Shown here in pieces: positions 37,092 through 38,904 of a DNA stretch of 64,000 bases. Position numbers and translations under genes: made by a program. Every line of letters begins with the position of its first letter. Positions within the stretch are counted from its first letter, which is position 1. A model generated the notes under the pieces. The model saw nothing but the letters and a program-made list of their open reading frames with translations, was not told where the DNA came from and did not search any database. The stretch is from Solirubrobacteraceae bacterium (GTDB lineage Bacteria > Actinomycetota > Thermoleophilia > Solirubrobacterales > Solirubrobacteraceae), in contig JADGPP010000004.1 in assembly GCA_017882375.1 (NCBI GenBank), positions 1 to 64,000 on the forward strand. The letters run 5' to 3'.

Positions 37092-37213
37092 CTGCAGCGG
37101 CCTACACCGCTCGCGCGCGAGCGTTACCGTCCTGTGGCAAAGCGCGATGCTGGACGCAAAGCGGACTTGCCGTCGCCGCGATCGTTGCTAGACTTCGCGC
37201 CAGACATAGCTGG

Positions 37214-37306
37214 ACACATCCAGAGGGGTGAAGGGACTGGCCCTATGAAACCCCGGCAACCACCGTCACGTCACAGCGGGAAGGTGCCAATTCCAGAGAG
37301 ATGTGT
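37214..37306 (+). ncRNA. SAM-I (S-box) riboswitch aptamer upstream of thrC-like gene
   Basis: P1 acacatc(37214-37220)/gatgtgt(37300-37306); conserved core aggggtgaagggactggccctatgaaaccccggcaacc...ggtgccaattcc. Confidence 0.93.
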
Positions 37307-37311
37307 GGCGA

Positions 37312-37366
37312 GCCTTCGCGCTCTTCGCACAAGTGACACAGCGAAGACAAGAGCGAAGGGAGCCCA
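37312..37366 (+). promoter_or_regulatory. Candidate riboswitch expression platform: hairpin overlapping the thrC-like Shine-Dalgarno
   Basis: ccttcgcgctctt (37313-37325) can pair with aagagcgaagg (37349-37359), which overlaps SD gaaggg just upstream of ATG 37367. Confidence 0.6.
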
Positions 37367-38629
37367 ATGGCTGTCAGTCATCTTCAGTGCAAGGAGTGCA
37401 AGGCGCAGTACCCGCTGGAGGCCGTATACGTGTGCGAGACGTGCTTCGGCCCGCTTGAGGTCGTCTACGACCACAGCCGTACCAGCGGCGACGTCGGCGA
37501 GCTGCGCCGGCGCATCCAGGGCGGGCCGCAGAACATCTGGCGCTACGCCGATTTCCTGCCGCTCGCGGGCGGCCCTCCCGGGCCGTCGGGACGGCTGGCC
37601 TCGCGCGTCGGCCTGCCGGCCGGCTGCACGCCGCTGATCCGCGCCGACCGCCTGGCCGAGCGCCTGGGCCTGCGCGAGGTGTGGGTCAAGAACGACGCGG
37701 CCAACCCGACGCACTCGTTCAAGGACCGCGTCGTATCGGTCGCCGTCACGCGCGCTCGTGAGCTGGGCTTTGAGACAATCGCCTGCGCCTCCACGGGCAA
37801 CCTCGCAAACTCGGTGGCGGCCCACGGCGCGGCGCTCGGGCTGGACTCCTACGTCTTCATTCCCTCGAACCTTGAGGAGCAGAAGATCCTCGCGACGGGC
37901 GTCTACGGAGCCAAGGTCGTCGCCGTGGAGGGCAACTACGACGACGTCAACCGTCTGTGCACGGAGCTGTGCGCCGAACGCGACTGGGCGTTCGTGAACA
38001 TCAACCTGCGCCCGTACTACGCCGAGGGATCCAAGACGCTCGCCTTCGAGATCGCCGAGCAGCTGGGCTGGGAGCTGCCCGATCGTTGCGTCGTTCCGGT
38101 CGCCTCGGGCTCGCTGTTCACGAAGATCGCCCGCGGCTTTGAGGAATGGCGCGAGCTGGGCTTGCTCGAGGGCGAGCTGCCGAGCATGAACGGCGCCCAG
38201 GCCCAGGGCTGCTCACCGGTGGCCAGCGCCTTCGCCGACGGCCAGGACGTCTGCCGGCCGGTCAAGCCGGACACGATCGCCAAGTCGCTGGCGATCGGCA
38301 ACCCGGCCGACGGTCCCTACGCGCTGGACCTCGCCCGACGCACGGGCGGCGGCGTGGACGCGGTCACAGACGACGAGATCCGTGCGGGCATCAAGCTGCT
38401 GGCCGAGACGACCGGGGTCTTCACCGAGACCGCCGGCGGCGTCACGACCGCCGTGCTGGCAAAGCTCGCGGCGCGCGGGGATATCGACCCCGACGAGCGC
38501 GTCGTGCTGGTGATCACCGGCGAGGGCCTGAAGACGCTGGACGCCGTGCGCGGGACATTTGAGACGCACACGATCGCGCCCACGGTCGACGCGTTTGAGG
38601 CCGGGGTGCCGCAAACGGTCTCGGTCTGA
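37367..38629 (+). CDS. thrC: Threonine-synthase family PLP enzyme with N-terminal zinc ribbon
   Basis: LQCKECKAQYPLEAVYVCETCFGPLEVVYD; VKNDAANPTHSFKDRVVSVAV; STGNLANSVAAHGAALGL. Confidence 0.93.
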   Translation: MAVSHLQCKECKAQYPLEAVYVCETCFGPLEVVYDHSRTSGDVGELRRRIQGGPQNIWRYADFLPLAGGPPGPSGRLASRVGLPAGCTPLIRADRLAERLGLREVWVKNDAANPTHSFKDRVVSVAVTRARELGFETIACASTGNLANSVAAHGAALGLDSYVFIPSNLEEQKILATGVYGAKVVAVEGNYDDVNRLCTELCAERDWAFVNINLRPYYAEGSKTLAFEIAEQLGWELPDRCVVPVASGSLFTKIARGFEEWRELGLLEGELPSMNGAQAQGCSPVASAFADGQDVCRPVKPDTIAKSLAIGNPADGPYALDLARRTGGGVDAVTDDEIRAGIKLLAETTGVFTETAGGVTTAVLAKLAARGDIDPDERVVLVITGEGLKTLDAVRGTFETHTIAPTVDAFEAGVPQTVSV

Positions 38630-38904
38630 TGTCGGTGCTCGTGAAGATCCCGACGCAGCTGCGTGCCGCGGCGGGCGGCGAGGCCGAGACCCAGGTCGAC
38701 GGCGCGACCGTGCAGGAGGTGCTCGACGGGCTGTTCGAGCGCCACGACGAGCTGCGCGCGCGCCTGTACGACGACAAGGGCGGCCTGCGGCGCTTTGTCA
38801 ACGTGTACGTCGCCGGCGAAGACATTCGCTTCCTCGACGGGCTTGCCACGCCGGTCAAGGACGGATCGGAGCTGACGATCCTTCCCGCCGTAGCCGGCGG
38901 CTAG
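38629..38904 (+). CDS. CysO/MoaD/ThiS-type ubiquitin-like sulfur-carrier protein
   Basis: VLVKIPTQLRAAAGGE...RRFVNVYVAGEDIRFLDGLATPVKDGSELTILPAVAGG, C-terminal Gly-Gly; start overlaps stop of thrC-like gene (TGATG). Confidence 0.93.
   Translation: MSVLVKIPTQLRAAAGGEAETQVDGATVQEVLDGLFERHDELRARLYDDKGGLRRFVNVYVAGEDIRFLDGLATPVKDGSELTILPAVAGG

What the first reader, a model, noticed from the sequence alone, without database searches (positions are those of the whole stretch)
37214..38904. SAM-I riboswitch controlling a threonine-synthase-like enzyme coupled to a CysO-type sulfur carrier
Seen: a near-consensus SAM-I aptamer, then a ThrC-family PLP enzyme, then a Gly-Gly-terminated CysO/MoaD-like protein whose ATG overlaps the ThrC stop (TGATG). 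Established: SAM-I RNAs usually repress methionine/sulfur genes, and M. tuberculosis CysM uses CysO thiocarboxylate with O-phosphoserine to make cysteine. ThrC enzymes act on O-phosphohomoserine, the one-carbon-longer analogue. Inference: the pair may make homocysteine from O-phosphohomoserine plus carrier thiocarboxylate. A weaker alternative is that SAM merely tunes the Thr/Met branch point while the carrier serves another enzyme. No E1-like activator or JAMM protease lies in this window.
Basis: partly seen in the sequence, partly recalled or inferred. Interest (0 to 1): 0.85.

Follow-up and report, generated by a model that had tools for sequence, protein, structure and literature searches.

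The report
SAM-riboswitch-controlled MetM/MetO homocysteine synthesis operon
This bacterium appears to make methionine's precursor homocysteine with a remodelled threonine-synthase-like enzyme fed sulfur by a small carrier protein and controlled by a SAM-sensing RNA; the route was described in Streptomyces in 2024, and here it looks like the only route in the genome.

Summary
A complete SAM-I aptamer (37213-37307, 76.7 bits) leads a two-gene operon: a ThrC-like PLP enzyme (37367-38629) and a Gly-Gly-ended ThiS/MoaD/CysO-like carrier (38629-38904). It is the MetM/MetO pathway shown biochemically in Streptomyces (Hasebe et al. 2024, Appl Environ Microbiol), where metM is also reported to have an upstream SAM riboswitch. 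Genome tests support it strongly. The canonical lysA-hom-thrC-thrB cluster is elsewhere. No MetB/MetY/MetZ/MetC-family enzyme, MetX or HcyA reaches its cut-off. One rhodanese-E1 plus JAMM protease, needed to load and mature carriers, lies with CysO/CysM on another contig. Across 120 genomes of the class, 62 of 63 MetM orthologues sit just behind a SAM-I aptamer (the exception is cut by a contig end), and only 2 genomes lack both MetM and a Cys/Met-metabolism PLP enzyme. In sister lineages the same riboswitch precedes MetY-like genes. MetM proteins differ from ThrC at invariant active-site positions. In vitro activity and SAM binding were not testable here. Verdict: a new member of a known kind.

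The parts
37213..37307 (+). SAM-I (S-box) riboswitch aptamer
   Evidence: Rfam RF00162, 76.7 bits, full-length match; 25 of the model's pairs form in this sequence
37308..37366 (+). Probable expression platform: GCCUUCGCG...GCGAAGG hairpin whose 3' arm holds the Shine-Dalgarno GAAGGGAG
   Evidence: Folded in the MFE and with the aptamer enforced; no intrinsic terminator found. Inferred translational control, not tested
37367..38629 (+). metM: threonine-synthase-like PLP enzyme, inferred homocysteine synthase (O-phosphohomoserine + MetO thiocarboxylate); N-terminal CxxC...CxxC; catalytic Lys119
38629..38904 (+). metO: sulfur carrier protein ending in Gly-Gly, translationally coupled to metM (TGATG)

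Best explanation
This is a MetM/MetO operon under a SAM-I riboswitch. MetO is adenylated at its C-terminal glycine by the genome's single rhodanese-E1 (MoeB/MoeZ-like) and converted to a thiocarboxylate. MetM binds O-phosphohomoserine (made by Hom and ThrB) on PLP, expels phosphate, and takes the carrier's sulfur at C-gamma to give homocysteine, which methionine synthase methylates. When SAM is plentiful, the riboswitch folds and shuts the operon, probably by hiding the ribosome-binding site. Shown here: anatomy, orthology, conservation, absence of alternatives, presence of accessory genes. Inferred: reaction, sulfur loading, regulation.
For: Aptamer and genes. Published precedent: MetM is a homocysteine synthase and metO a sulfur carrier in Streptomyces albulus, and metM has an upstream SAM riboswitch there (as cited in PMC12172450; the primary paper, Hasebe et al. 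2024, doi 10.1128/aem.01247-24, is not held, and its abstract is known to me from memory). The genome has a canonical ThrC in lysA-hom-thrC-thrB, so MetM is not needed for threonine. No Cys/Met-metabolism PLP enzyme over cut-off, while 14 of 14 control genomes have one; no MetX over cut-off; no HcyA; a methionine-synthase-type S-methyltransferase domain is present. Rhodanese-E1, CysO, CysM and JAMM lie clustered on C121. Class survey of the same 120 genomes (tabulated): 62 of 63 MetM orthologues have SAM-I 29-176 bases upstream; 27 genomes have MetM but no strong PF01053, 2 have neither, 54 have only PF01053, 37 have both (Fisher p = 3e-7, phylogeny not corrected); 8 SAM-I elements precede MetY-like PF01053 genes, i.e. 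the same switch controls the alternative enzyme. metO follows metM in 53 of 61 class loci. MetM forms a clade apart from ThrC (97/90 support) with clade-wide changes at active-site positions.
Against: No biochemistry on this pair. The S. albulus sequence was not in hand, so orthology to the tested enzyme rests on family and arrangement. A cyanobacterial MetM homologue (51.6% to S. albulus MetM) was reported with threonine synthase and deaminase activity and doubtful homocysteine activity (PMC12172450). 37 genomes hold both MetM and a strong PF01053 protein, so MetM is not always the sole route. The genome is a draft (95.9% complete), so a missing enzyme could lie in a gap. Six relatives (L170-L175) have SAM-I and MetM without a carrier gene next door.
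Confidence: 0.9

Rival explanations
1. The enzyme is a second threonine synthase (or threonine synthase/deaminase) whose output is tuned by SAM at the Thr/Met branch, and the carrier serves another enzyme such as CysM.
For: It passes the NCBIfam thrC cut-off. A cyanobacterial homologue has threonine synthase and deaminase activity in vitro (PMC12172450).
Against: Canonical ThrC sits with hom and thrB elsewhere. CysM has its own CysO in its own cluster. SAM repression of a threonine enzyme would be backwards. The family has lost ThrC-invariant residues. Without it the genome has no visible homocysteine synthase.
Confidence: 0.05
2. MetM makes homocysteine but uses free sulfide or another carrier in vivo; MetO is dispensable or shared with CysM.
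For: Six relatives have SAM-I and MetM with no adjacent carrier. MetO and CysO here are 49% identical and would have to share one E1.
Against: metO overlaps metM translationally here and adjoins it in 53 of 61 class loci and in 69 of 80 diverse loci within 150 bp. Carrier dependence is reported for the Streptomyces pair.
Confidence: 0.1
3. The pair makes another sulfur amino acid (for example cysteine from O-phosphoserine), as CysM/CysO does.
For: The carrier is CysO-like and both enzymes are fold-type II PLP proteins.
Against: A dedicated CysM-CysO-Mec-E1 cluster exists. The enzyme is nearest to ThrC and not to CysM. SAM-I control fits methionine.
Confidence: 0.03

Closest known systems
MetM/MetO pathway of Streptomyces (Hasebe et al. 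2024, doi 10.1128/aem.01247-24)
   Same: ThrC-like enzyme followed by a sulfur carrier gene; SAM riboswitch upstream; O-phosphohomoserine branch point; actinomycete relatives (Streptosporangium, Microbispora, Actinomadura) on the same side of the tree with the same SAM-I/metM/metO layout
   Different: Found in Solirubrobacterales; activity not tested here; the E1 is a rhodanese-MoeB form (PRK08762) apparently shared with CysO/CysM
HcyS/MetY protein-thiocarboxylate pathway of Wolinella (Krishnamoorthy and Begley 2011, cited in PMC5764234)
   Same: Homocysteine made with sulfur from a carrier thiocarboxylate
   Different: There the enzyme is MetY on O-acetylhomoserine (own knowledge); here a ThrC-type enzyme, no MetY over cut-off and no MetX over cut-off
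CysM/CysO/Mec of M. tuberculosis
   Same: Carrier close to CysO among characterised proteins; fold-type II PLP enzyme; E1 and JAMM accessory proteins
   Different: The enzyme is ThrC-type; this genome has a separate CysM/CysO/Mec cluster on contig C121
Canonical threonine synthase ThrC
   Same: Fold, PLP lysine in SFKDR, S-T-G-N loop
   Different: ThrC-invariant G64, M65, T88, S155, R160, N188 and P288 (Thermus numbering) are V, V, L, N, Y, S and T in nearly all of 141 MetM sequences; extra N-terminal CxxC...CxxC; SAM-I control

Membership tests
SAM-I riboswitch (RF00162) | Match to the covariance model above the gathering score | tested here: met
   76.7 bits against 44.4, full length
SAM-I riboswitch (RF00162) | Binds SAM and lowers expression | not testable with these tools
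   Needs in-line probing or a reporter; a hairpin holding the Shine-Dalgarno sequence is predicted
MetM/MetO homocysteine pathway | ThrC-homologous PLP enzyme in the MetM clade, apart from ThrC | tested here: met
   Tree: MetM-type rows split from ThrC with 97/90 support, actinomycete SAM-I/metMO loci on the same side
MetM/MetO homocysteine pathway | Carrier gene with C-terminal Gly-Gly directly downstream | tested here: met
   TGATG overlap, ends VAGG
MetM/MetO homocysteine pathway | E1 enzyme able to thiocarboxylate the carrier is encoded | tested here: met
   Rhodanese-ThiF protein on C121; its action on MetO not tested
MetM/MetO homocysteine pathway | SAM riboswitch upstream, as reported for S. 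albulus metM | tested here: met
MetM/MetO homocysteine pathway | Direct sequence orthology to S. albulus MetM | not tested
MetM/MetO homocysteine pathway | Converts O-phosphohomoserine plus MetO-COSH to homocysteine | not testable with these tools
   Needs an enzyme assay
Canonical threonine synthase (ThrC) | ThrC-invariant substrate-pocket residues (T88, S155, R160, N188 of the Thermus enzyme; role as phosphate contacts recalled, not checked) | tested here: not met
   L, N, Y and S in the window protein and in nearly all MetM
HcyS/MetY (Wolinella type) | MetY (PF01053) enzyme | tested here: not met
   No PF01053 protein over cut-off in the genome
CysM/CysO | O-phosphoserine-type cysteine synthase next to the carrier | tested here: not met
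   The neighbour is ThrC-type; CysM lies in the C121 cluster

The most novel reading that the evidence does not exclude
MetM/MetO is the missing homocysteine route in several lineages where none of the known pathways was found. Price et al. 2018 (PMC5764234) named Aquifex aeolicus and Acidimicrobium ferrooxidans as such cases; MetM-type proteins with the diagnostic residues occur in Aquificaceae and Acidimicrobiaceae loci and also in Nitrospirota, Nitrospinota and Verrucomicrobiota. In the class of the window, MetM and MetY-like enzymes are interchangeable clients of one SAM-I switch.
Probability: 0.6. Interest if true: 0.5.

Novelty: new member of a known kind. Interest (0 to 1): 0.35.

Why it matters
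It shows that a recently described methionine route is the only visible one in a soil actinobacterial lineage, under tight and almost universal SAM-I control there. It warns that many proteins annotated as threonine synthase are probably homocysteine synthases, which corrects predicted auxotrophies and metabolic models.

Tried and rejected
The primary MetM paper is not in the library; its content is taken from a citing paper and from memory. No Streptomyces MetM was found in the plasmid collection; the only record was a Nonomuraea entry at 54%. A literature search to verify the phosphate-contact residues of Thermus ThrC found nothing usable. Searches for prior literature on SAM-I with thrC in actinobacteria, and for further MetM papers, gave nothing more. 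The 2006 survey of ThiS/MoaD neighbourhoods mentions cysteine synthase but not threonine synthase. An automatic Shine-Dalgarno sequestration score over 59 leaders gave a mixed result: 37 of 59 have at least 4 of 6 SD bases paired to an upstream strand, 27 have a U-run of 5 or more, so the expression platform is not uniform, and the trimmed window leader itself scored poorly because the 5' arm was cut off. Structure prediction was not run, since the fold is not in doubt.

Full report
Observation. The window holds a full-length SAM-I aptamer at 37213-37307 (76.7 bits, cut-off 44.4), the only one in the genome, followed by a 420-residue threonine-synthase-like PLP protein (37367-38629) and a 91-residue ThiS/MoaD/CysO-like protein ending in LPAVAGG (38629-38904). 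Stop and start overlap as TGATG. All stated features are real.

What is known. A ThrC-like enzyme that makes homocysteine from O-phosphohomoserine with a thiocarboxylated sulfur carrier was reported in Streptomyces in 2024 as MetM, with the downstream gene metO (Hasebe, Adachi, Maruyama and Hamano, doi 10.1128/aem.01247-24). The paper is not held. A citing paper, PMC12172450, describes MetM as a novel homocysteine synthase that converts OPHS to homocysteine and prevents methionine auxotrophy in S. albulus, metO as a sulfur carrier family member, and states that S. albulus metM has an upstream SAM riboswitch. The dependence on MetO thiocarboxylate is from my memory of the abstract.

Own-genome test. 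The genome (3.57 Mb, 95.9% complete) carries a canonical lysA-hom-thrC-thrB cluster on C42, whose 361-residue ThrC is of the ordinary short form. No PF01053 protein (MetB, MetC, MetY, MetZ) reaches the cut-off, while all 14 control genomes have one. No MetX passes its cut-off (that control is weak, since no control genome passes either, but the genome's hits are short, best 33 bits) and there is no HcyA. A methionine-synthase-type S-methyltransferase domain is present. Contig C121 carries a rhodanese-E1 (NCBIfam PRK08762), a CysO-like carrier ending AGGR, a CysM-like enzyme and a JAMM protease in a row. A third ThiS-family protein is encoded on C1. So MetO would share the one E1 with CysO; the two carriers are 49% identical.

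Class survey. The same 120 genomes were searched for PF01053, RF00162 and MetM and tabulated. Of 63 MetM orthologues (E below 1e-120), 62 have a SAM-I aptamer 29-176 bases upstream on the same strand; the exception starts at base 2 of its contig. More distant paralogues, including one on C109 of this genome (46%), have none; one fragmentary orthologue (G083) does. For the co-occurrence table G083 was counted as MetM-positive: 27 genomes have MetM and no strong PF01053 hit, 37 have both, 54 have only PF01053 and 2 have neither (Fisher p = 3e-7; relatedness not corrected). Eight further SAM-I elements lie about 100-130 bases before full-length PF01053 genes, so the same switch governs the alternative enzyme. 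Other SAM-I elements precede genes that look like methionine synthase and MetK (by eye). In 61 class loci metO follows metM within 241 bases in 53; of the 8 others, one is cut by the contig end, one has no carrier found, and six belong to two families whose MetM is 54-58% identical. In 80 loci from named genomes, metO lies within 150 bases in 69 and 376-779 bases away in 7. A SAM-I motif is upstream in 45, including all 19 closest loci (L018-L035 and L037, mostly titled Solirubrobacterales or Thermoleophilaceae), with Rfam confirmation in 8 of 8 motif-positive loci checked and none in 4 motif-negative ones.

The enzyme. A tree of 55 proteins separates MetM-type proteins from structurally solved ThrC and the genome's own ThrC (97/90 support); the Arabidopsis and CysM rows are long branches. 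The alignment of 141 MetM sequences shows near-invariant changes at ThrC-invariant positions (Thermus numbering): G64V, M65V, T88L, S155N, N157R, R160Y, Q164S, N188S and P288T, with the PLP lysine and S-T-G-N loop kept. That T88, S155, R160 and N188 contact the substrate phosphate in ThrC is from memory and was not verified. Since MetM must still bind O-phosphohomoserine, invariant R215 (at N157) may take over; this is inference.

Mechanism. Hom and ThrB supply O-phosphohomoserine. MetM eliminates phosphate and adds sulfur at C-gamma instead of water at C-beta. The E1 loads MetO. Methionine synthase finishes the route. The leader places the Shine-Dalgarno GAAGGGAG in the 3' arm of a stable hairpin and has no intrinsic terminator, so translational shut-off on SAM binding is the likeliest mode; the folding did not show a clear SAM-free structure that frees the site, and the platforms of relatives are mixed.

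Verdict.

Noticed in passing
L099:2976-4343 (G000:C109, next to leuS): A third ThrC-like protein, 455 aa, 46% to MetM, with several MetM-type residues (V-V after KDR, R215, Y218) but no SAM-I and no carrier gene; function unknown.
   Followed up: partly
L170-L175: Two families of the class have SAM-I directly before a 54-58% MetM but no carrier gene within about 1.5 kb; followed by leuB-like, chorismate-mutase-like or other genes. The carrier may be elsewhere or the sulfur donor may differ.
   Followed up: partly
L063, L066, L069, L073 downstream of metM: In Verrucomicrobiota-type loci the carrier gene (500-780 bases downstream) is followed by a small protein resembling NIL-domain proteins (by eye); NIL proteins are linked to the other, HcyA-type homocysteine route.
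   Followed up: no
MetO C-termini in 61 class loci and 80 named loci: Most MetO proteins end exactly in GG, but a minority carry extra residues (R, C, RR, A, QA, SHD and others), which would need JAMM-type trimming; the CysO here ends AGGR.
   Followed up: partly
L152 (G061:C7): The MetO-like ORF behind metM reads on into a 389-aa epimerase-like protein and has lost the terminal GG; either a fusion, a frameshift or a sequencing error.
   Followed up: no
G015:C59, G109:C5 and C29, G106:C23, G003:C1, G069:C47, G103:C524, G112:C7: SAM-I aptamers 101-133 bases before MetY-like PF01053 genes: the same riboswitch class on the alternative homocysteine enzyme.
   Followed up: yes
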